NCBI GenBank assembly: GCA_024280015.1
Contig: JAJRQY010000149.1
Location: 1 to 36,219, forward strand
Reading direction: 5' to 3'
DNA: 36,219 nucleotides
Source: Actinomycetes bacterium
Lineage (GTDB): Bacteria > Actinomycetota > Acidimicrobiia > Acidimicrobiales > SZUA-35
The position numbers and the translations under genes are program-made. A model generated the notes under the pieces. That model did not search any database. It saw only the letters and a program-made list of their open reading frames with translations, and had not been told where the DNA came from. Positions 1,601 to 11,839 of this stretch are shown piece by piece (the first letter of the stretch is position 1; each line of letters begins with the position of its first letter).

Positions 1601-3052
1601 GTGAGTAACCCAGTGAAACGTTTGAATCTCAGCGGTACCAAGATCGGATTGGGTGCCGCCCTGATCTGGTTCTTCGGTGTCCTTGCCTATTCTGAAACGT
1701 TGGTCGGGGGTGATGTCGCCAGCGGAGGGTTGGCCAGCGGTCACCTATCCCAAGAAGCCGCCCGGATGCTGGCAATCTTTGGCGCGGCTGTCGCTCTCTG
1801 GATCAGCGAAGCCATTCCTTTGGCCGCTACCGCGGTCGGCATCATCTTGGCGGAGATCCTTCTGGTGTCAGACCAAGCCGTACTCGCGTTGGCGCCCCAA
1901 TTCGAGCCGAATACGTACCAAAGTTTCTATGCCTCCTTGGCCCACCCGGTGCTCATGCTGTTCCTCGGGGGTTTTGTGCTGGCCGACAGCGCCGCCAAAT
2001 ACCAGTTGGATCGGAACTTGGCGGGGGTGATGCTTCGACCCTTCGGATCATCGCCGCGTTCTCTGCTTGGTGGGCTCATGGTGATCACGGCCCTGCTGTC
2101 GATGTTCATGTCCAATACCGCGACTACCGCCGCCATGATTGCCGTGATCATCCCGGTCACGGCCAGCTTGGACCCCAGCGACCGGCTTCGGGTTTCACTT
2201 ACCCTGGCGGTTCCGGTTGCGGCCAACGTTGGAGGCCTTGGAACCCCGGTTGGCACGCCGCCAAACGCCATTGCCTTAGGTCGCCTCGCCGATGAGGGAA
2301 TCCGGGTTGACTTTCTTACCTGGATGGTGGCGGCGGTTCCGCTTATGGTCGTCGTTCTGGTCTTTGCTTGGTTGGTATTGACCTGGCGCTATCCGGCCAC
2401 TACGAAGGCAGTCGACCTCACCATTGGCGGTGCCTTTGACCGCAGTCGACCCGCCATCATTCTCTACGCCACATTCTTCCTCACGATCATTGCCTGGTTG
2501 AGTGAGCCGATCCACGGTGTGCCTGCATCCATTGTTGGTTTTGTGCCCGTTGTTGTTCTCCTGAGTTCGGGAGTCTTCACTGTTGATGATTTGCGTAAAC
2601 TCAACTGGCACGTTCTGTGGCTGGTGGGGGGTGGTATCGCCCTCGGCAGTGGGGTGGCCTCGACCGGTCTGGACGCCTGGATGGTTGGCCTGCTTGATTG
2701 GGAGTCGATGCCCAATATCGTCCTGCTGGCAGCCCTCGGCTTGTTGGCGATTGTGCTGAGTACGGTGATCTCTAACTCGGCCACGGCCAACCTTTTGATT
2801 CCAATTGGCATCACGCTGGCAACGTCGGGAGCAACCGACCTTGATCCGCTACTGGCTGGGCTCCTGATCGCCATTGCCTGTTCCTTAGCCATGGCGCTCC
2901 CGGTCAGCACGCCGCCCAACGCAGTGGCCTATGCCACTGGGACGGTTGCTACGAAGGACCTGGCCTCTGTTGGAGTATTGGTCGGTGGTTTTGGGTTGCT
3001 CCTGGCGGTCTTTGTGGCCCCGGTCCTTTGGAAAGGGATGGGATTAATGTGA
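1601..3052 (+). CDS. DASS/SLC13-family sodium:anion symporter
   Basis: A 483-residue polytopic membrane protein of the divalent anion:sodium symporter family, which imports di- and tricarboxylates or sulfate with Na+. Two inverted structural halves are visible from the repeated family motifs: SNT at 171-173 with TPPNA at 219-223, and SNS at 391-393 with TPPN at 437-440. These form the two substrate/sodium sites in known members. The start is GTG; no strong ribosome site is seen. Its last codons overlap the following histidine kinase (GTG at 3049 within the TGA context at 3050-3052), so the transporter, kinase and response regulator form one operon. The exact substrate cannot be read from the sequence. 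Confidence 0.9.
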
Positions 3053-5052
3053 ACCTTCCCGCACCGAGTTCTTCACTCATCCTGGTCGTAAACACCGACC
3101 CGGTGGTTGGTGAAGCCCTAGTGGCAGACTTGGAATCGATCCTGGAAGGATGTTCGTTACCGGACGCGCCTTCCCCCGCGATTGTCCGTTTGGTGGATGG
3201 AGCCGAGCAGACCCTCCGATTGGCGAAGGCGACGATTGCCGCTGGTGGCATTGTGCCGGTGGTCTTTGTTGAACGAACCTTGTCGTCTGGACGCGGTGTC
3301 GATGTGCTCCTGGATCTGCATGAAGACCCCGACCTCATCGCGGTACGCAAGATATTGGTGACCAGCAAGGCCTCGTTGCTTGACGTTGATGAGGCCCTTA
3401 ATCGTGGCGCCGTACACGGCATGATCACCCGACCTTGGACCCGCTTCGGACTGGGAGAGCAGCTGGAGGCCCAACTGGCAACCTACCTGGTGGAACACGC
3501 CCCCGAACGCGTCGAGGACTTCGTCGGATTGTTGGATGGAGAAGATCTTTCAAAGGCGGCGGCACGGGTTGAGGAACGGAAGCTGGCTCCTTCAGGCGAA
3601 AGCGAATCCACTCATCTGATTCTGGATCATGAGATTACCAACCAGGAGTTGGAAGATCGACTGGTTGCTGCCCTTGACCGGGCTCTTGGTCATCCACCCC
3701 GCCTCCGAGTTGGCCCCGGGACGATCCTCATTGAAGAGGGTGACGATGTTGGCGGGATCTATGTCGTACTGGACGGAACAGTTCGTCTGAGTTCCAAAAC
3801 AACAACGGGGACCCGCGTCCTTCACGAGCGCTCGACCGGCTCCATTGTCGGCTTGTTGTCCCTGGCCAGCCACCGTCGAGCCATGCTGCGCTGTCGGGCC
3901 ATGACCGAGGTGCGGGCCATACCAATCACCCTGCACCAGTTGGCCAAGGCCATGGATAGTGATCCAGAAGTCTTGGAGCTGTTGACCCGGGTCCTGATCG
4001 GCTCACTTGCTCGGCGACTGCGACGCTCCGATGAACTTCAGGTCGAGTTGGATCAGAGCCTGGCGGCCTTGTCCGAAGCAAGAGCGTCCCTGGTAGCGAG
4101 TGCTCGACGAGCAACCCTGGGTGACATGGCAGCGGGGATGGCTCACGAACTCAACAATCCGGTAGCCGCTCTCAGTCGGGCGGTCGAACACCTCCAAGAA
4201 GACATGATTGAGGTGATCGAGAGTCCGTCGACCAAGATGCACGTCAACCGGGCGATCATGGCTGAGCCTCCTTCGGCGGCAGAAGCGCGTCGGGCCAAGG
4301 CCACCATTAGCAAACGGCTGGGCGACCGATCGTTGGCCGATACCCTGGTCGAGGCCGGGATCCTGGATGTGGATGCTGCGGTGGAGTTGGTAGGACATGG
4401 ACGTGAGGGGATCCGCCAAGTTCGGGCCGCCTCTCGTCTTGGTCGCTCTCTTCGTAATGCCACCAGTGCGGCGGAGCGAATTGGATCCCTGGTGAAGAGC
4501 CTGGGCGGCTACGTCCGGGGAGGCGATGGGCAAAGGCCAATGATCCCCGATCTCGATGTCACCGAAGGCGTCGAGAATGCTCTGCGATTGGTTGCCCACC
4601 GGATCGGGGGAGTGAGCATCGAACGCAACTATGAGCCGGTTCCCCTCATCACCGCCCGGCCCGGAGCCCTCCAGCAGGTATGGACCAATTTCTTGATCAA
4701 CGCACTGGACGCCATGGGTGATGGTGAGGCACCAATCGATGGCGTGATCGGTGTCGAAGTGATGCGGCTGGATCAGAACACCATCAGGGTTGCGGTCACC
4801 GATTCTGGTCCGGGAATCCCCGAGGCGCTGCAGTCCAAGATATTCGAGCCGAAGTTCACCACGAAGGATGGGCGAGTCAAGTTTGGGCTTGGACTGGGCC
4901 TATCGATCGCGGCCCAGATTGTTGATGAGCATCACGGACAAATTGCGCTCAGCAGTCGTCCGGGTCATACCGTATTCTCAGTTGAGCTGCCGATCGGTAG
5001 GAGCCCCGATGTTGGACAGATCCAGGATAGTCAAGAAGAGAGGCTGCGATGA
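3049..5052 (+). CDS. Soluble hybrid-like histidine kinase: pseudo-receiver, CNB-like domain, kinase core
   Basis: This 667-residue kinase has no membrane segment. Residues about 8-150 resemble a receiver domain, but the acceptor position is Glu75 (VVFVERTL) instead of Asp and the conserved Lys is Arg128 (ITRPW). Residues about 205-330 resemble a cyclic-nucleotide/CRP-type sensor barrel (GTILIEEGDDVGGIYVVLDG). The dimerisation helix holds the phospho-His at 366 (MAHELNNP). An insert of roughly 70 residues separates it from the second helix. The ATPase domain has Asn547/Asn551, DSGPG at 585-589, FEPKFTT at 599-605 and GLGLGL at 613-618. A TTG at 3028 is an alternative start; GTG at 3049 gives the usual 4-base overlap with the transporter stop. 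The response regulator follows with an ATGA overlap. Confidence 0.88.
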   Translation: MNLPAPSSSLILVVNTDPVVGEALVADLESILEGCSLPDAPSPAIVRLVDGAEQTLRLAKATIAAGGIVPVVFVERTLSSGRGVDVLLDLHEDPDLIAVRKILVTSKASLLDVDEALNRGAVHGMITRPWTRFGLGEQLEAQLATYLVEHAPERVEDFVGLLDGEDLSKAAARVEERKLAPSGESESTHLILDHEITNQELEDRLVAALDRALGHPPRLRVGPGTILIEEGDDVGGIYVVLDGTVRLSSKTTTGTRVLHERSTGSIVGLLSLASHRRAMLRCRAMTEVRAIPITLHQLAKAMDSDPEVLELLTRVLIGSLARRLRRSDELQVELDQSLAALSEARASLVASARRATLGDMAAGMAHELNNPVAALSRAVEHLQEDMIEVIESPSTKMHVNRAIMAEPPSAAEARRAKATISKRLGDRSLADTLVEAGILDVDAAVELVGHGREGIRQVRAASRLGRSLRNATSAAERIGSLVKSLGGYVRGGDGQRPMIPDLDVTEGVENALRLVAHRIGGVSIERNYEPVPLITARPGALQQVWTNFLINALDAMGDGEAPIDGVIGVEVMRLDQNTIRVAVTDSGPGIPEALQSKIFEPKFTTKDGRVKFGLGLGLSIAAQIVDEHHGQIALSSRPGHTVFSVELPIGRSPDVGQIQDSQEERLR

Positions 5053-5540
5053 GTGAGCTTGTGGTTTTGGTGGTGGAAGATGAGCCGGAGGTTCGTGATG
5101 CCATCATCCGGGATCTTGACACCTACGGTGACACCATTCGATTAGTGGAGGCCGAAAGCTTTGAGGACGCCCTAGTGGCCATTCGGGAGATTGAGTCCGA
5201 GGGAGATTTCCTTGGGTTGGTGTTGGCCGATCACCGATTGCCAGGCCGCACTGGTGTCGACTTGCTGGTCACGCTCAACGATGACCCGACTTCTCGCAGA
5301 ATCCGCAAGGTTTTGATAACCGGGCAAGCCGGGCAGGAAGACACCATTCGGGCTATCAACGACGCTGCTTTGAATCGCTACATCGCCAAACCCTGGGATG
5401 CCGGAAAGCTTCGGCACGTGGTAACAGAACAGCTGACAGACTTCGTGATCGAGGCGGGATTGGATCCATTGCCGTTCGTTCGTGATCTGGACGGGCCAAG
5501 GCTCCTGGAGGCCTTTCCCCGGCGGGGTTTGACCGAGTAG
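5049..5540 (+). CDS. Single-domain response regulator
   Basis: A 163-residue protein made of a receiver domain and a short C-terminal tail, with no DNA-binding or enzymatic output domain. Acidic residues Glu10-Asp11 start the acidic pocket, the phospho-acceptor is Asp61 (LADHRLPG), and the conserved Lys is 114 (YIAKPW). It starts within the kinase stop (ATGA, 5049-5052) and is almost certainly the kinase's partner. Receiver residues around the acceptor and the final Pro-Trp resemble the kinase's own pseudo-receiver, as if both came from one duplication. Signalling may be by protein-protein contact, perhaps with the transporter, since there is no transcription output. Confidence 0.9.
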   Translation: MSELVVLVVEDEPEVRDAIIRDLDTYGDTIRLVEAESFEDALVAIREIESEGDFLGLVLADHRLPGRTGVDLLVTLNDDPTSRRIRKVLITGQAGQEDTIRAINDAALNRYIAKPWDAGKLRHVVTEQLTDFVIEAGLDPLPFVRDLDGPRLLEAFPRRGLTE

Positions 5541-5645: not shown

Positions 5646-7103
5646 TCAGAGAATCGAGCCGTGGGCTCCCCGATTGGGGTTGAATAAGCCATCGGGATCG
5701 ATGGCTTGTTTGACCTTGGCCAGCAGCTCCAACTCGACCGTCGACTTCTGCCCTGCCATGCGGTCTCGCAGTTCTTGACCTACCCCGTGCTCGGCGCTGA
5801 TGGTTCCACCAAACTTCCAGGTGCAGGCGTCGACTCCGTCAACGATGGCCTGCTTGAGCACAGTGTTCATTGGTTCAGGATCCATGGCCGTGCCTACGGA
5901 GGCAAGATCAGACGCGGGTTGGGTGTTCGTGTCTGGATCCAGCATCATATAGAGATGAAGGTTGCCGTCGCCAAGGTGGCCAAAGGCGTAGACGATCAGA
6001 TCTGGGTCGAGCCTGCTGGCTAGAGCAACAATCTCGCGGTGGTAGGCCGGGACTTGACTCGTTGGTACGGCAATATCGAACTTGACGCCTATCTGATCGA
6101 AGACTCGATCCGGCGGCAGCTCATCCCGCAGGCTCCAAAGGTTTGCTTCCTGCGCCCCGGTTTGGGCAACAACTCCATCACTGATCAGGCCAAGCTCGGC
6201 TGCAGAGGTCAGGAACTCTCCCATCGGTTCCACCAAGGGCCCGTTAGCCGCCAGCTGGCCAAGCACATACCAGTTAGCGATCGTCGACATCGGTCGGGAC
6301 ACGGAAGGGTACTTCTTACACACCAGGCGAATACCAAGCTCGGGGATGAGTTCGAAAGCGGCCAGTGATTGTTGGAAATGCGCTTGGGCCAGCGAGTACA
6401 GCTCGGGTACACGATCGAAATCGGCAATCGCAGCCAGAAACGACTGCCGCTCGGAGCGTAGCGGTTCGAGTTTCAGCACGACCTTGGTCACCAGACCGAG
6501 GGTTCCTTCTGCTCCAACGAAGAGGTGCTTGAGCCCATAGCCGCTGGCGTCTTTTCGCAGTGAGCGCAAGCCATCCCAAACCTGACCGTCAGGCAAGACA
6601 ACCTCAAGACCAAGCACTTGGTCGCGCATTGTGCCTGACCGAAGCACATTAATTCCACCTGCATCGGTGGACACGGCTCCACCAACAGTCGCCGTGCCCC
6701 GGGCGCCCCAATCAACCCCAAACTCTCGATCCACAGCCATCGCTGCCTCTTGAATTTCCTGGATGGTCACACCAGCTTCAGCGGTAATAGAGAACGAATC
6801 TGGACTCACATCAAGGATGGCCCGCATCCTGGTAGTCGACACGATGATGTTTGGACGATCGGTGTAAGGAGCAGCACCACCGGACAAGCCGGTGTTGCCG
6901 CCTTGGGAAACAATGGCGATGCCGGCCCGTCGACAGATGTTGACAATGGCGACTACCTCAGCAACGTTCGCCGGACGTGTGACCAACAGAGGCACACCCG
7001 AATAGGTTGCGCGCCAATCAATGGAGTACGAGGCCATGTCGGTTCCTGCGACCCAACCTTGTTCACCCAAGAGCCCCTTCAGCTCGCTGATGGCAGACTC
7101 CAC
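5646..7103 (-). CDS. GlcD-like FAD-binding dehydrogenase (D-lactate / D-2-hydroxyacid type)
   Basis: A 485-residue FAD-dependent oxidoreductase of the PCMH/VAO fold. Near residues 66-76 SQGGNTGLSGG forms the FAD pyrophosphate loop, with a second FAD stretch at GGAVSTDAGG (141-150). The C-terminal half carries GHLGDGNLH near 370 and SAEHGVG near 449, the metal/substrate motifs of D-lactate, D-2-hydroxyglutarate and glycolate dehydrogenases. It begins with GTG at 7103 sharing one base with the TAG of the molybdenum-subunit gene, so it is the last gene of that operon. This family oxidises 2-hydroxyacids; the actual substrate here is unknown. It might act on a product of the hydroxylase, but that is inference. 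Confidence 0.88.
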   Translation of the reverse strand: MESAISELKGLLGEQGWVAGTDMASYSIDWRATYSGVPLLVTRPANVAEVVAIVNICRRAGIAIVSQGGNTGLSGGAAPYTDRPNIIVSTTRMRAILDVSPDSFSITAEAGVTIQEIQEAAMAVDREFGVDWGARGTATVGGAVSTDAGGINVLRSGTMRDQVLGLEVVLPDGQVWDGLRSLRKDASGYGLKHLFVGAEGTLGLVTKVVLKLEPLRSERQSFLAAIADFDRVPELYSLAQAHFQQSLAAFELIPELGIRLVCKKYPSVSRPMSTIANWYVLGQLAANGPLVEPMGEFLTSAAELGLISDGVVAQTGAQEANLWSLRDELPPDRVFDQIGVKFDIAVPTSQVPAYHREIVALASRLDPDLIVYAFGHLGDGNLHLYMMLDPDTNTQPASDLASVGTAMDPEPMNTVLKQAIVDGVDACTWKFGGTISAEHGVGQELRDRMAGQKSTVELELLAKVKQAIDPDGLFNPNRGAHGSIL

Positions 7104-9703
7104 TATTCGGCTTCGATCACGCCTGCTAGTTCCAGAATTCGAGTCGGCGGCAGATGCTGCTCGGTGATGCGAACACCCAGGTGAGCTAGCGCATTCTCCA
7201 CCGCGTTATTGATGGCTGGGGGTGAGCCGATCATGCCGCCTTCGCCAACACCACGGAAGTCAGCTTCGACCGAGGCCGGCGTCTCGAGGTGGAAGATCTC
7301 GATCTCAGGGATCTCCATTGCGGTGGGGATCAGGTAGTCCATGAAGGTGCTGGATTGGAAATTGGCTGACTCGTCGTACACGGTTTTCTCGTAGAAGACT
7401 GCACCGATTCCTTGAGCAACCCCACCCCGGATCTGGCCTTCGACGATCGCCGGATTGATCATCTGGCCGCAGTCTTCCACCACGACATAGCGGGGGATGG
7501 TGACAAACCCGGTCTCGAGGTCAACATCCACCCAACAAACATGGGTCGAACAAGCCCAGCCGCCATTGCCGGCATTGCTGTACACCACATGGGTCTCGAT
7601 GGCGTTAGCTGTGCTTGCTGCCTGGCCCCTACTGGTTACAGCCCTGGCCACGTCAGCAAACGTTTTGGACAATGCCGGTACTCCTCGAACATGGATCTTG
7701 CCGTCGATAATGTCCAGGTCATCGACCGATGCTTCCATCAGGTCGGCGGCCTCGTCCAAGATCAACCGCCGTAGTTGGCGGCTGGAGAAGGTCACGCCGC
7801 CACCACCAACCGGTCCGCCGCGGCTGCCGCCAGTACCCAGCAAGCCAAACGGCGTGTTGTCGGTATCGCCATAAACCAGGGTCACGTCTTTGATGGCGAT
7901 ACCAAGCTCGTCGGCTGCTAGCTGGGAGTAGGTGGTCTCGTGGCTTTGGCCGTGCGGAAGCTGTTGAGTCTTGATCGATACTGAGCCGTCACGGCCAAGA
8001 ACCGCGTCGACTCGTTCGGGCAGGAAGGCGTCCGATCCCGGATTGACGGATTCCCAGAAATTGTCGGGGCCGGGAGCGGCCTCATGGTAGGTGGCGAAGC
8101 CGATGCCCAGGTGCCGTCCAATGGTTAATGCTTCAGCCTGGGCCACTTCGAATGCAGGTAGGTCAGCAACCTCGATTGCCTTGGCCAGGGTTGCTGCTGC
8201 GGTCATGTCCTCATCGAGGTCGGGCCCGGTCACCATCTTGCCTGGAAGGTGCTCGGGGCCGAACATGTTCTTCTGACGCAGTTCAGTTGGTGAGATTGCC
8301 AGCTCGCGGGCCACGATGTCCAGCATTCGTTCTCTCACCCAGGTCTCGTTGGCCCACGGGCCGCGATACTGGAGGTAGCGACCCTTGTTGGAGGCGACAA
8401 CCTTCATCTTCATTTCGAACGCTTCGAGCCGGTAGGGACCCGGCAGCATGGCCTTGATCATGTTGGAAAAGAGGCCGCAATTGAAGGGAACCGCGGGGTA
8501 GGCACCCTGGTCCATCACCAGCTCGACTCGGAAGCCGAGGATGGTTCCGTCGTCCTTGGCGGCAACCGAGATTGTCATGTCTTCTTCGCGAGCCTGGCCT
8601 CCGTCGGCCAAGTTCTCCGACCGGTCTTCGATCCATTTGACCGATCGGTTCAGATCAAGGGCCGCAGCTAGCAATACGACGTCCTCGCGGTTGACGGCAC
8701 CCTTTGACCCGAACGCACCACCGACATCCTTGGCTACCACTCGCGGATAGCGACGTGAACCCAGAGTGTTGAAGAAGGTACGACCAAGGTGGGCCAGGGT
8801 TGAAGGATCCTTCTTGATCTGGTTGGTGCTGGCGGTGCTGTCATTCTTGGCCAGGTCGTCCTTCTTCTCGGTGAGGAAAGCTTTGGCCCCGGCGCCAAAC
8901 TTCTTCAGGCGGTCGCGATTCGTCGCCAGGTATTTCAGTGACTCAACAACCGATTCACGCTCGGTTGAGATGGCCAGGATCCATCTCAGAAGGTGAGGTG
9001 ACTGGGTTGCGGCGTGGTAAGTGATCTCACCACTGTCTGGATCAATCTCGGCTACGGCTCCGCGAGTCTCCATTGGCTGGTTGGAGACTCGATGGCAAGA
9101 GAACGTTTCGGTGAACACATGATCTGCTCGGGCGAAAACTCGTTCGATTTCGCCGTAGATCTTCTCGTCCTCATAGAGGACGTTGCTGTCGTTCTTGGGC
9201 CAGATTGCGGGGATGGTCGGGTCGTTGGCTTCACGATGATTGGTGACGGTGGCCAGGGGTTTGTAGTCGACGTCGATGAGTTCAGCTGCGTCTTCGGCAA
9301 TACAGCGCGAGGTAGCGATGATGATGGCAATGGGATCACCAACGTGTCGTACCCGATCGGTGGCCAGTCCATAGAAAACAGGTGTGTACTGGTTGGCCAA
9401 TGAAGCCAGGGGAGCGAACGGGTTGGTCAGGCGTTCGATGTCCTTGCCGGTATAGATGGCGATGACGCCGTCCAACGCGAGCCCAGCAGCCAGGTCGATG
9501 GAGAGGATCTCGGCGTGGGCGTAGGGCGAGCGGAAGAAGGAGGCATGCACAACTTCTTCTGGATTGACGTCGGCAACGTAGGTGCCGTTACCGGTGAGCA
9601 GGCGCTGGTCTTCTACCCGTTTCACGCTCTGCCCAACGAATCTGCCCATCGCAGGCGCATTGGTGTCTGCATTCAGGGCCTGTTTGGCCAGCGATTTACG
9701 CAT
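7103..9703 (-). CDS. Molybdenum hydroxylase large subunit (xanthine/CO dehydrogenase family)
   Basis: An 866-residue molybdopterin-binding subunit of the xanthine oxidase family. The aldehyde-oxidase-like N-terminal domain (RFVGQSVKRVED from 21) is followed by the cofactor domain, with DVGGAFGSKG at 326-335 and the base Glu821 in GVGEGG. The active-site loop reads QYRGPW (445-450). It is neither the AYRCSFR of CO dehydrogenase form I nor the AYRGAGR of form II, so CO oxidation is not supported. About 70 charged, family-atypical residues lie between the TQSPH motif (233-237) and DVGGAFG. The start at 9703 was chosen because a GGAGG lies about 8 bases upstream and the overlap with the 2Fe-2S subunit stop is 8 nt; the frame is open to 9790. 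Confidence 0.9.
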   Translation of the reverse strand: MRKSLAKQALNADTNAPAMGRFVGQSVKRVEDQRLLTGNGTYVADVNPEEVVHASFFRSPYAHAEILSIDLAAGLALDGVIAIYTGKDIERLTNPFAPLASLANQYTPVFYGLATDRVRHVGDPIAIIIATSRCIAEDAAELIDVDYKPLATVTNHREANDPTIPAIWPKNDSNVLYEDEKIYGEIERVFARADHVFTETFSCHRVSNQPMETRGAVAEIDPDSGEITYHAATQSPHLLRWILAISTERESVVESLKYLATNRDRLKKFGAGAKAFLTEKKDDLAKNDSTASTNQIKKDPSTLAHLGRTFFNTLGSRRYPRVVAKDVGGAFGSKGAVNREDVVLLAAALDLNRSVKWIEDRSENLADGGQAREEDMTISVAAKDDGTILGFRVELVMDQGAYPAVPFNCGLFSNMIKAMLPGPYRLEAFEMKMKVVASNKGRYLQYRGPWANETWVRERMLDIVARELAISPTELRQKNMFGPEHLPGKMVTGPDLDEDMTAAATLAKAIEVADLPAFEVAQAEALTIGRHLGIGFATYHEAAPGPDNFWESVNPGSDAFLPERVDAVLGRDGSVSIKTQQLPHGQSHETTYSQLAADELGIAIKDVTLVYGDTDNTPFGLLGTGGSRGGPVGGGGVTFSSRQLRRLILDEAADLMEASVDDLDIIDGKIHVRGVPALSKTFADVARAVTSRGQAASTANAIETHVVYSNAGNGGWACSTHVCWVDVDLETGFVTIPRYVVVEDCGQMINPAIVEGQIRGGVAQGIGAVFYEKTVYDESANFQSSTFMDYLIPTAMEIPEIEIFHLETPASVEADFRGVGEGGMIGSPPAINNAVENALAHLGVRITEQHLPPTRILELAGVIEAE

Positions 9704-10295
9704 TGGCGGTGCCTCCGTCTTGCCGGTTCGTATCGGTGGTTTCGCTTGCGTCACGCCGACCTGACCCATAGAGCTGGACTGCGGTCTCAACTCCCTTGAG
9801 GATGGTGTGATAGCCGGTACAGCGGCACAGATTGCCCGACAGTTCCTCGCGAATTTGTTCCTTGGTGGGATTGGGATTGCTGTTAAGCAAGGCCATTGTT
9901 GTCATCACGAATCCCGGAGCGCAGAAGGCGCATTGGAAGCCGTGGCTTTCGTGGAAGGCTTGCTGGATCGGATGGAGAGTTCCGTCAGGCTCGGCCAGTC
10001 CCTCAATGGTGGTGATTGTGGTTTCATCGGCGTGAACAGCCAGCATGAGGCAGGAACGAACTGCCTGACCATCCAACAGGATGGTGCATGCGCCGCAAAC
10101 ACCATGTTCGCAGCCCAGGTGGGTGCCGGTGAGCCCGAGGTCTTCGCGGATGAAATCAGACAAGGATTGACGGACAGCTATGTCGTGGTTCGCCGTTGTG
10201 TCGTTGACCGTTACCGTGATCCGGCGTGTCGTCTGGCCTGCTGGTGCTTGAGCTGCTGGTGTCTGAGATGCTGACCGGTCGGTTGGATTGCTCAC
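9696..10295 (-). CDS. Molybdenum hydroxylase [2Fe-2S] small subunit
   Basis: A 199-residue iron-sulfur subunit that passes electrons from the Mo site to FAD. The plant-ferredoxin-type cluster is bound by Cys62, Cys67, Cys70 and Cys82 (GCEHGVCGAC). The second cluster is bound by Cys122, Cys125, Cys157 and Cys159 (CAFCAPG and CRC). An N-terminal Ala/Pro/Thr-rich extension of about 22 residues makes it longer than typical CoxS-type subunits (about 160-170). The GTG start at 10295 lies inside the FAD-subunit stop as GTGA. All eight cluster cysteines are intact. Confidence 0.93.
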   Translation of the reverse strand: MSNPTDRSASQTPAAQAPAGQTTRRITVTVNDTTANHDIAVRQSLSDFIREDLGLTGTHLGCEHGVCGACTILLDGQAVRSCLMLAVHADETTITTIEGLAEPDGTLHPIQQAFHESHGFQCAFCAPGFVMTTMALLNSNPNPTKEQIREELSGNLCRCTGYHTILKGVETAVQLYGSGRRDASETTDTNRQDGGTANA

Positions 10296-11167
10296 GTGAG
10301 GACTCCGGTCTGGCTCATGCAGTCAGCCAATGCTCGTTTGGTCAACACCCCGGCGGCATGTTTCCGATAATTGGCTGAAGCGTGCGTATCGCTTGGCGGA
10401 TCCAGCTCGTTGCTCACCATGTTGGCAATCTCCTCGAACAGCTCCGTCGTTGGACGGGAACCAACGAGCGACTGCTCCGCCTGTGTGGCCCGTGACGGCG
10501 TTGAAGCGACACCGAAGAATGACAAGGCCGCACTGTCTACTAGTCCGTCGCTAGACAGTTGCAACACACAAGTCAGCCCGACGAGAGCAAAATCTCCGTG
10601 CCTGCGGCTGAGTTCTTGGACCGAGGTCAGCATCCCAGCAGGGGCTTGGTGGAAGCGGACGCCAACCAATAATTCGTTCTGTTGCAGAGTGGTTGACAAG
10701 AAGCCGGAGAAGAAGTCTTCGGCGGCGATGAAGCGAGCCCCGTCCGTCGAGGCGGCGATGAGCTCGGCGTCAAGAGCCAAGGCAACGGCTGGTAATTCCG
10801 CCGCGGGATCGGCGTGAGCAAGACTTCCGCACAAGGTGCCTCGGTTGCGGATCGCCCGATGGCCGATGTAAGGCATGGCCTTGTGGAGCAGGGGGACACT
10901 GTCTCTCGTCACTGGTGAGGCTTCGGCCTGGCTGTGAGTAACTAGGGCTCCAAACATGACGATGTCTGATTCGGTCTCGATTGAATCCAGACCACGAATC
11001 TGACTGATGTCGATAATGTTCTCCGGCTGGCCTAGCCGGATGGCCATGACAGGCAGAAGGCTTTGACCACCAGACATGATCTTGGCTTCTTCGCCAATTT
11101 GCGCCAGAAGCAGTAAGGCCTCATCCAGCGTTTCCGGTCGGTGGTAGGCAAACGGCGGATTCTTCAC
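10292..11167 (-). CDS. Molybdenum hydroxylase FAD-binding medium subunit
   Basis: A 291-residue flavoprotein of the CoxM type, first gene of the operon. Both FAD motifs are present: MSGGQSLLP at 31-39 and TLCGSLAHAD at 111-120 (the usual second Gly is Cys here). The C-terminal CO-dehydrogenase flavoprotein domain follows. The start is GTG at 11167, because the sequence from there (NPPFAYHRP) begins like the family, the length fits, and AAAGG sits 7 bases upstream. An ATG at 11266 in the same frame would add 33 atypical residues and overlap the divergent YigZ gene. The gene order FAD, 2Fe-2S, Mo subunit is that of cox clusters; no maturation genes (coxDEF, xdhC-like) are in the window. Confidence 0.88.
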   Translation of the reverse strand: MKNPPFAYHRPETLDEALLLLAQIGEEAKIMSGGQSLLPVMAIRLGQPENIIDISQIRGLDSIETESDIVMFGALVTHSQAEASPVTRDSVPLLHKAMPYIGHRAIRNRGTLCGSLAHADPAAELPAVALALDAELIAASTDGARFIAAEDFFSGFLSTTLQQNELLVGVRFHQAPAGMLTSVQELSRRHGDFALVGLTCVLQLSSDGLVDSAALSFFGVASTPSRATQAEQSLVGSRPTTELFEEIANMVSNELDPPSDTHASANYRKHAAGVLTKRALADCMSQTGVLT

Positions 11168-11233
11168 CCCCAGACCTTTGCATATCTTTGCGGCCTGGTC
11201 ACGTCCACCGGGCTTGTTCGCTAGGTTCTCGGC

Positions 11234-11839
11234 GTGGCCTGCACGCTGAGTGACACTATTCGCCATGAGGGACAGGCGGTGAAGGGGTCTCGATTTCTCG
11301 TTGCTCTTGCGCCGGTTTCGACCGAGGAAGCAGCGAAGGAATTCTTACAACAGACTCGGAGTGAGATTCCTGGCGCAAGCCATCACTGTTGGGCGTGGCG
11401 GTTGGCAAGCCCAGCTATTGAACGGGCCGGGGACGACGGTGAGCCAAGCGGATCCGCCGGCCGTCCCATCTTGGCTCAGCTGGCTGGCAACGATGTGGTG
11501 GATGTGATTGCCGTTGTCACCCGATTCTTTGGTGGTACCAAGCTCGGTGTTGGGGGCCTGGTCCGGGCTTATGGAGGAGCAGTTGGCGAGGCTTTGGCGA
11601 CAACGAATCTTGTCCCGTATCGAAACATGGAAACACTTAGTGTGCGCTACCACCACTCAGCTGATCGCTCTGTCGAAGATCTGGTTGACGAGCTTGCAGG
11701 CACAACCCTTGATGTTGTCTACACAGCCGATGTCACCCGAATCGTGTCGATTGCTGGGGAGGATCATGAACGCTTCGCCGCTCGGCTCGGGGATCTGACA
11801 TCGGGTCAGGCCACGATCGAGGAGCAATCCTGTGCCTAG
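11234..11839 (+). CDS. yigZ: YigZ/IMPACT (UPF0029) family protein
   Basis: A 201-residue protein of the YigZ/IMPACT family, whose bacterial members have no agreed biochemical role. N-terminal residues 17-26 (KGSRFLVALA) and the signature RFFGGTKLGVGGLVRAYGGA at 98-117 are diagnostic. A smaller C-terminal domain follows from about 130. The start is GTG at 11234. It is transcribed divergently from the molybdenum hydroxylase operon across about 66 bp, and its stop overlaps the convergent PPK2 gene by 4 bases. Confidence 0.9.
   Translation: MACTLSDTIRHEGQAVKGSRFLVALAPVSTEEAAKEFLQQTRSEIPGASHHCWAWRLASPAIERAGDDGEPSGSAGRPILAQLAGNDVVDVIAVVTRFFGGTKLGVGGLVRAYGGAVGEALATTNLVPYRNMETLSVRYHHSADRSVEDLVDELAGTTLDVVYTADVTRIVSIAGEDHERFAARLGDLTSGQATIEEQSCA

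What the first reader, a model, noticed from the sequence alone, without database searches (positions are those of the whole stretch)
3049..5540. Kinase with a Glu-substituted pseudo-receiver feeding a receiver-only regulator, co-operonic with a DASS transporter
The kinase N-terminal domain aligns with its partner regulator, including the closing Pro-Trp, but the phospho-acceptor Asp61 of the regulator corresponds to Glu75 and Lys114 to Arg128. Asp-to-Glu can mimic phosphorylation, so the domain may be locked 'on' or serve as a docking decoy. A cyclic-nucleotide-like barrel follows, and the regulator has no output domain. Overlapping genes tie all this to an anion transporter, hinting at post-translational control of transport or uptake sensing.
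Basis: partly seen in the sequence, partly recalled or inferred. Interest (0 to 1): 0.55.

Follow-up and report, generated by a model that had tools for sequence, protein, structure and literature searches.

The report
Transporter with its own phospho-switch module
Three overlapping genes make an anion transporter, a soluble signalling kinase carrying a dead copy of its partner, and that partner, a bare phospho-switch with no DNA-binding part; the trio recurs in distant bacteria and may switch the transporter on or off directly.

Summary
Kinase residues 9-150 form a receiver fold (AlphaFold pLDDT 90; Z 17.8), with Glu75 and Arg128 where the partner regulator has Asp61 and Lys114. The Mg-binding acidic pair is lost too: a pseudo-receiver, missed by Pfam.

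The Glu 'locked on' reading is not supported. Among 20 kinases with this N-terminal region, only the window and one relative have Glu and Arg; elsewhere the site is Ser, His, Asp, Ala, Arg or Cys. No copy keeps both Asp and Lys, and 12 of 32 kinases lack the region. The 20 copies form one clade inside the regulator family (support 0.88), suggesting one old duplication.

The stronger finding is the module. 25 of 35 regulator loci have a DASS transporter of one subfamily next door (23 with the kinase, 2 without). Kinase and this subfamily occur in the same 8 of 296 genomes of the window's phylum; regulator and subfamily in 12 each of 398 Pseudomonadota, 11 shared, even where unlinked. Two Bacteroidota relatives of the transporter lack the regulator nearby.

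Best reading: the kinase sets phosphorylation of the bare regulator, which acts on the transporter protein. That last step is inferred.

The parts
1601..3052 (+). DASS/SLC13-family transporter, 483 aa; member of the DASS subfamily that co-occurs with the kinase and regulator
   Evidence: TIGR00785 254.6 bits, cut-off 198.6; subfamily split support 0.99 in a tree of 34 linked or paired and 12 other DASS proteins; with two Bacteroidota sequences added, these regulator-less proteins join the clade
3049..5052 (+). soluble histidine kinase, 667 aa: pseudo-receiver, cNMP-like barrel, long helical DHp with insert, HATPase; GTG start overlapping the transporter stop by 4 bases
   Evidence: highest 19-residue Kyte-Doolittle mean 1.68
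3073..3498 (+). pseudo-receiver domain, kinase residues 9-150
   Evidence: model pLDDT 90.4; Z 17.8 to a receiver; active-site table; no Pfam match in the window copy, receiver model matched 2 of 17 copies
3271..3273 (+). Glu75, at the phospho-acceptor Asp position
   Evidence: Glu in 2 of 20 copies
3430..3432 (+). Arg128, at the conserved Lys position
   Evidence: Arg in 2 of 20 copies, Lys in 7 of 20 (all in the Pseudomonadota sample)
3499..3588 (+). tail helices of the pseudo-receiver (residues 151-180), matching the regulator's C-terminal tail
   Evidence: match of kinase 6-173 to the regulator; helices 152-158 and 164-179
3706..3960 (+). cNMP-binding-like barrel, residues 220-304, without the cassette Glu
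   Evidence: PF00027 E 1e-10; Glu 0 of 32 in this family, 3 of 4 in the kinases beside REC-oxidoreductase proteins
4117..4218 (+). HisKA segment with phospho-acceptor His366 (HELNN)
   Evidence: PF00512 25.6 bits, under the 26.9 cut-off; HELNN in 32 of 32 kinases
4663..4995 (+). HATPase_c domain, residues 539-649
   Evidence: PF02518 E 2e-21
5049..5540 (+). single-domain response regulator, 163 aa, with a C-terminal tail; all catalytic residues intact
   Evidence: Response_reg E 2e-13; Asp and Lys in 35 of 35 family members
5229..5231 (+). Asp61, phospho-acceptor of the regulator
5388..5390 (+). Lys114 of the regulator

Best explanation
This is a transporter-control module. The soluble kinase phosphorylates (and, from its HExxN motif, whose meaning is recalled, probably also dephosphorylates) the bare receiver protein. 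Having no output domain, the receiver must act by binding another protein, and the most likely target is the DASS transporter encoded with it, whose activity it would switch according to a cytoplasmic signal. The kinase's N-terminal domain is an old, catalytically dead duplicate of that same receiver, now an internal regulatory domain of the kinase that senses or docks rather than accepts phosphate. Shown by sequence: gene order, co-occurrence, intact kinase motifs and regulator, dead receiver copy, single origin of that copy (modest support). Inferred: phosphotransfer, receiver-transporter binding, the signal, and the role of the pseudo-receiver.
For: (a) Gene order DASS-kinase-regulator in 23 of 35 regulator loci and DASS-regulator without a kinase in 2 more. 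All 16 loci of the window's phylum have the trio; seven of these were found by the regulator profile alone, 7 of 7 trios. Taking the start codon nearest the upstream stop, 13 of 16 have a 4-base transporter/kinase overlap. (b) Co-occurrence: kinase profile in 8 of 296 genomes of the phylum and this DASS subfamily in the same 8 of 296 (449 bits or more; the two other DASS hits have 144 and 140), Fisher 8e-16; in 398 Pseudomonadota, regulator in 12 (E 1e-28), DASS subfamily in 12 (E 1e-55), both in 11, Fisher 2e-19, or 5e-18 without the query genome. (c) In those 11 genomes the number of regulators equals the number of subfamily DASS genes, 2/2 or 1/1 in 11 of 11, although nine kinase-regulator pairs have no DASS gene within the 12 kb fetched. 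(d) Motilimonas has a channel-like gene, DASS, kinase and regulator in a row with an epmA-like gene about 4 kb on; G719 has channel-like gene, DASS and epmA-like gene in a row and the kinase-regulator pair elsewhere, as if relocated (gene names recalled). (e) Two transporter loci keep the regulator without a kinase beside it (L099, L102). (f) Regulator Asp, Lys and both acidic residues in 35 of 35. (g) Pseudo-receivers form one clade, 20 of 20, support 0.88, inside the regulator tree (0.72) rooted on receivers of REC-oxidoreductase proteins. (h) Precedent: EpsW, a single-domain regulator, acts post-translationally on the membrane enzyme EpsZ (PMC12802240, abstract).
Against: No binding or transport data. 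Two Bacteroidota DASS proteins fall in the same clade with no kinase or regulator within about 5 kb; in the two plasmid-collection records that hold them (not the whole genomes) the regulator profile found nothing but a 36-bit receiver in one, so this transporter can probably work without the switch. G496 has the regulator but no DASS match at E 1e-10; G640 has a looser DASS (237 bits) but no regulator at E 1e-28. In nine Pseudomonadota genomes kinase and regulator are not next to the transporter, and of the 19 Pseudomonadota regulators only 9 have DASS next door. The co-occurrence counts ignore shared ancestry. 12 of 32 kinases do without the N-terminal domain, so it is not essential to the module. 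The full-length kinase model has pTM 0.40, so its domain arrangement says nothing. The L011 and L091 N-termini are very divergent and only weakly receiver-like.
Confidence: 0.5

Rival explanations
1. Uptake sensing: the transporter is the sensor. Substrate flux through DASS is relayed to the kinase, and the regulator carries the message to some other target such as another enzyme or motility.
For: Transporters serve as co-sensors in E. coli DctA/DcuS (PMC4280142, abstract) and in the CbrA transporter-kinase (listing only). Nine kinase-regulator pairs are unlinked from DASS but occur in genomes that have it.
Against: The known co-sensor kinase DcuS is membrane-bound, whereas this kinase has no clear membrane segment. 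Two transporter loci keep the regulator but no kinase beside it, the reverse of what a transporter-to-kinase relay predicts.
Confidence: 0.25
2. Glu75 mimics a phosphorylated Asp and holds the pseudo-receiver permanently active.
For: Glu is the most frequent residue at this site in Asp-less receivers and can partly mimic phosphorylation in many regulators (PMC12632262 section 18). Both window and G025 pair Glu with Arg at the Lys site.
Against: Glu in 2 of 20 copies only; the others are Ser 8, His 3, Asp 3, Ala 2, Arg 1, Cys 1. The acidic pair is Asn/Thr here. The review suggests that a mimic works through contacts with the conserved Thr and Lys; the Lys is Arg here.
Confidence: 0.06
3. The pseudo-receiver is a docking decoy that occupies the kinase's regulator-binding surface and so gates phosphotransfer.
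For: It looks like a duplicate of the cognate regulator; the loop after strand 5 is better kept than the rest (0.55 and 0.50 identity to the regulator against 0.23 and 0.25 overall); pseudo-receivers inhibit kinase autophosphorylation in ShkA and CikA (PMC12632262 section 20).
Against: Helix 1 shows no excess similarity to the regulator (0.23 in the ten copies of the window's phylum, 0.19 in the ten others), and in the window's phylum a copy is no closer to its own regulator than to others, 0.232 against 0.229.
Confidence: 0.15
4. The three genes are only co-expressed; the regulator acts on an unrelated partner and the link reflects a shared carbon-use regulon.
For: Bacteroidota members of the DASS clade lack the regulator nearby; one genome has the regulator without a DASS match.
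Against: Genome-level pairing and equal copy numbers in unlinked genomes and two DASS-regulator pairs without a kinase.
Confidence: 0.2

Closest known systems
EpsW/EpsZ of Myxococcus xanthus (PMC12802240, abstract)
   Same: A single-domain response regulator thought to control a membrane protein by direct contact, post-translationally.
   Different: The target there is a phosphoglycosyl transferase and the phosphate comes from a chemosensory system; here the suspected target is a secondary transporter and the kinase is soluble and co-encoded. Binding is not shown here.
Receivers fused to FAD-dependent oxidoreductases (thioredoxin-reductase-like, recalled) with neighbouring cNMP-HK kinases
   Same: Best plasmid-collection matches of the window's regulator (40-44% identity over 61-72% of it; neighbours); in the window's class the cNMP kinase lies next door in 4 of 4 loci opened.
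   Different: The receiver there is fused to a larger protein, the cNMP cassette Glu is kept in 3 of 4 kinases, the kinases lack the long N-terminal region, and no DASS gene was matched in the four stretches.
ShkA and CikA pseudo-receivers (PMC12632262 section 20)
   Same: A dead receiver inside a kinase that controls it.
   Different: Those are hybrid kinases; ligands are c-di-GMP and quinones. Here the domain is N-terminal, apparently duplicated from the separate partner regulator, and no ligand is known.
DctA/DcuSR (PMC4280142, abstract) and SLC5-STAC kinases such as CbrA (listing)
   Same: Two-component system tied to a nutrient transporter.
   Different: DcuS is a membrane kinase and CbrA is fused to its transporter; here kinase and transporter are separate, the kinase is soluble and the regulator lacks any output domain.
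LvrB of Leptospira (PDB 8vc9)
   Same: Among the top fold matches of the whole kinase model; a hybrid protein with receiver and kinase parts.
   Different: The PDB title says its receiver is phosphorylated; here the receiver-like domain is dead and a barrel lies between it and the kinase core.

Membership tests
Bacterial pseudo-receiver domain | receiver fold | tested here: met
   pLDDT 90.4, pTM 0.87; Z 17.8, rmsd 1.6, 126 aligned; only the window's copy was modelled
Bacterial pseudo-receiver domain | lacks key residues for phosphotransfer | tested here: met
   window: N15, T16, E75, T105, R128 at the DD, D, T, K sites; no copy of 20 has the full set
Bacterial pseudo-receiver domain | identified as a receiver by family models | tested here: not met
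   PF00072 matches 2 of 17 copies at E 0.01, not the window's; found through the partner regulator and the fold instead
DASS (TIGR00785) | score above the curated cut-off | tested here: met
   254.6 bits against 198.6
DASS (TIGR00785) | sodium-coupled divalent anion transport | not testable with these tools
   substrate and coupling ion unknown
Histidine kinase (HisKA/HATPase_c) | H, N, G1, F and G2 motifs | tested here: met
   His366, Asn547/Asn551, Asp585, F603/T604/T605 and G613/G615/G617 invariant in 10 kinases; PF02518 E 2e-21, but PF00512 25.6 bits is under its 26.9 cut-off
Histidine kinase (HisKA/HATPase_c) | autophosphorylation | not testable with these tools
   -
Single-domain response regulator | receiver only, full catalytic set | tested here: met
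   Pfam; Asp, Lys and both acids in 35 of 35, Thr in 34 with one Ser
cNMP-binding domain | Pfam model above cut-off | tested here: met
   PF00027 41.9 bits against 27.5
cNMP-binding domain | cassette Glu that binds the ribose (motif recalled from CRP) | tested here: not met
   Leu269 in the window; Glu in 0 of 32
cNMP-binding domain | cassette Arg that binds the phosphate (recalled) | tested here: inconclusive
   Arg277 is one residue off in the alignment; Pro or another residue stands there in the Pseudomonadota copies
DctA/DcuS-type transporter co-sensing | membrane-bound kinase | tested here: not met
   highest 19-residue hydropathy 1.68 in the window and at most 1.9 in 32 kinases
SLC5-STAC-type transporter kinase | transporter fused to kinase | tested here: not met
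   separate reading frames, each with its own stop
EpsW-type regulator of a membrane protein | direct binding of the membrane protein | not testable with these tools

The most novel reading that the evidence does not exclude
A two-component system that controls a secondary transporter directly: the phosphorylated single-domain regulator binds a dedicated DASS subfamily and switches its transport cycle, with the kinase carrying a dead duplicate of the same regulator as its input domain. Kinase, regulator and pseudo-receiver would descend from a receiver-oxidoreductase system re-aimed at a transporter.
Probability: 0.4. Interest if true: 0.75.

Novelty: new variant of a known kind. Interest (0 to 1): 0.55.

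Why it matters
Two-component systems are thought of mainly as gene switches. A conserved trio of transporter, soluble kinase and bare receiver, kept in step genome by genome in two phyla, gives a testable case of phospho-signalling acting straight on a secondary transporter of the family that includes VcINDY and human SLC13. It also offers a natural series for the open question of what pseudo-receivers do: apparently one duplication, twenty dead copies with the acceptor site drifting, and sister kinases that have none.

Tried and rejected
Glu75 as a conserved phospho-mimic: rejected on 20 copies. Pseudo-receiver as a decaying relic: not supported. In four Pseudomonadota pairs it is about as conserved as the rest of the kinase (identity 0.90, 0.80, 0.75, 0.75 against 0.91, 0.75, 0.76, 0.68; dN/dS 0.05 in the one pair where synonymous change was not saturated); in four pairs of the window's phylum it changes faster (0.66, 0.49, 0.37, 0.33 against 0.75, 0.69, 0.48, 0.56; dN/dS 0.12-0.61 against 0.09-0.31). 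Co-adaptation of pseudo-receiver and own regulator: no signal. DASS positions specific to the linked subfamily: 30 of 111 conserved positions, for example Pro147-Phe148, scattered; no docking loop could be named. The transporter tree with L139 rooted badly; L139 was dropped and the tree repeated. Of 16 non-linked DASS loci held, 13 went into the first tree (L164, L165 and L171 left out) and 12 after L139 was dropped. Adding two Bacteroidota sequences broke the clean split and is reported. Named-organism mapping: plasmid-collection searches (30 of 35, 12 of 59 and 12 of 97 records listed, ranked by coverage and identity) showed no clear member of the regulator family, the rows seen being 26-44% identical; an Aeromonas caviae hit lies in a longer frame and scores 56 bits. 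Vibrio cholerae VC1155/VC1156-7 are, from memory, possible members near serC; passages report that VC1156-7 deletion raises vpsL transcription (PMC10237652, passages) and that VC1155 insertions reduced colonisation (PMC4441509, passages), but I could not test that they are homologues. Literature: searches (open-access library only) showed no paper on a DASS-kinase-receiver module among the papers listed; several searches had more hits than were listed and subscription journals are missing. The genome-contig scan with the kinase gave 3 loci, of which only Motilimonas pumila is a full-length relative. The organism of the window is not told by the tools; Actinomycetota is my inference.


Full report
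What was claimed and what is there. The window holds a DASS transporter gene (1601-3052), a kinase gene (3049-5052) and a bare response regulator gene (5049-5540), joined by 4-base overlaps. The kinase N-terminus aligns with the regulator (28% identity, E 4e-16) with Glu75 at the Asp61 position and Arg128 at the Lys114 position. The acidic pair is also gone (Asn15, Thr16). Pfam sees no receiver in the window's kinase and in only 2 of 17 N-termini scanned (17 of the 20 copies held were given), yet the predicted structure of the window's copy is a clear receiver: pLDDT 90.4, pTM 0.87, 318 Foldseek matches at E 0.001 or better with receivers filling nearly all of the 50 rows shown, and Z 17.8 to the XynC receiver. 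Between it and the kinase core lies a cNMP-type barrel.

Relatives. I collected 35 loci of the regulator family: the window; nine found through the kinase; 18 in Pseudomonadota found with the regulator profile (19 regulator matches, one of them the Motilimonas locus already held; four further matches are kinase N-termini); and seven in the window's class found with the same profile (nine matches above 220 bits, two already held; the other 12 matches, at 101-105 bits, lie in open frames of 554-1161 residues; four of those were opened and had a cNMP kinase beside them). Gene content: DASS-kinase-regulator 23, DASS-regulator 2, kinase-regulator without DASS in the fetched stretch 9, regulator alone 1. 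All 16 loci in the window's phylum are trios; nine of those 16 are the window or came from searches by kinase, so the seven found by regulator alone are the unbiased test, and they are 7 of 7. In Pseudomonadota 9 of 19 regulators have DASS next door.

The acceptor site. Twelve of 32 kinases lack the N-terminal region. In the 20 that have it (by length over 600 residues), the acceptor position is Ser 8, His 3, Asp 3, Glu 2, Ala 2, Arg 1, Cys 1; the Lys position is Lys 7 and Arg 2; none has both Asp and Lys, and only one has an acid at the second acidic-pair site (the alignment of L053, L091 and L011 is uncertain). The partner regulators keep Asp, Lys and both acids in 35 of 35. So the domain is a pseudo-receiver as a rule, but Glu is a local feature of the window and G025. 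In a FastTree tree rooted on receivers of REC-oxidoreductase proteins, the 20 pseudo-receivers form one clade (0.88) inside the regulator clade (0.72). Branches are long, so this is a moderate result. Pseudo-receivers share 25% identity with each other against 55% among regulators in ten loci of the window's phylum; what persists best is strand 4 and the Pro-Trp loop after strand 5. In Pseudomonadota pairs the domain is about as constrained as the rest of the kinase, so there at least it does something.

The barrel. The Glu of the cyclic-nucleotide cassette (motif recalled from CRP) is absent in 32 of 32 of these kinases but present in 3 of 4 kinases next to REC-oxidoreductase proteins. Canonical cAMP binding is therefore unlikely; another ligand or a purely structural role is open.

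The transporter link. In 296 genomes of the window's phylum the kinase profile hits 8 and the window's DASS subfamily hits the same 8 at 449 bits or more; two others have only distant DASS proteins at 140-144 bits. In 398 Pseudomonadota genomes the regulator is in 12 and the DASS subfamily in 12, 11 shared. In these 11 the counts of regulators and subfamily DASS genes are equal. Nine of them carry a kinase-regulator pair away from its DASS gene, and each of those nine has one subfamily DASS gene elsewhere with no kinase or regulator in the 10-12 kb fetched around it. Shared ancestry was not corrected for. Against this, two Bacteroidota transporters sit in the same DASS clade with no regulator beside them (only the records that hold them were searched), G496 has a regulator and no DASS match, and G640 a looser DASS and no regulator match.

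How it most likely works. A soluble kinase with intact catalytic motifs and an HExxN motif (phosphatase role recalled for such motifs) sets the phosphorylation of a receiver that has no output domain. Such receivers act by binding; EpsW/EpsZ is a recent precedent for a membrane target (PMC12802240, abstract). The steadiest partner of the regulator is the DASS protein, including two loci without a kinase, so direct control of the transporter is the best reading (about 0.5). Co-sensing by the transporter is the main rival (0.25): the known co-sensor DcuS is membrane-bound (PMC4280142, abstract) while this kinase has no clear membrane segment. The pseudo-receiver is best seen as an optional internal regulator of the kinase. 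The kinase pseudo-receivers of ShkA and CikA inhibit autophosphorylation and answer to ligands or proteins (PMC12632262, abstract and sections 7 and 18-20 read).

Known or new. Each part is of a known kind. The combination, with a dedicated transporter subfamily and a dead duplicate of the partner in the kinase, was not described in the papers listed by searches of an open-access library; that is weak evidence of absence. I rate it a new variant of a known kind.

Noticed in passing
L094-L098, L101 (short Pseudomonadota kinases of DASS-kinase-regulator loci): The G1 box Asp is Asn (NNGPEI or NNGSEI) and the H box reads HELNNA in 6 of 6, so these kinases may bind ATP poorly.
   Followed up: no
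L099 7867-9766 (minus) and L102 4236-6129 (plus): DASS gene followed at once by the regulator with no kinase beside it; L099 is a second copy in Motilimonas.
   Followed up: partly
L112-L123; L132-L135: Twelve matches at 101-105 bits in 296 genomes of the window's class are receivers in long frames; four were opened and lie next to a cNMP-HK kinase. No study of such a pair was among the 12 of 22 papers listed.
   Followed up: partly
L176 and L091 (G719) against L011 (Motilimonas): Similar neighbours of the DASS gene, but the kinase-regulator pair has moved, in G719 to between an argH-like gene and ribosomal protein genes (names recalled).
   Followed up: partly
L182, L183 (Bacteroidota): Members of the same DASS clade with no kinase or regulator nearby.
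   Followed up: partly
window 7103-11266, minus strand: Molybdenum hydroxylase-like genes (large subunit by match, small and medium subunits by eye) beside an FAD-linked oxidase-like gene (5646-7103, by eye), not in the trio's operon.
   Followed up: no
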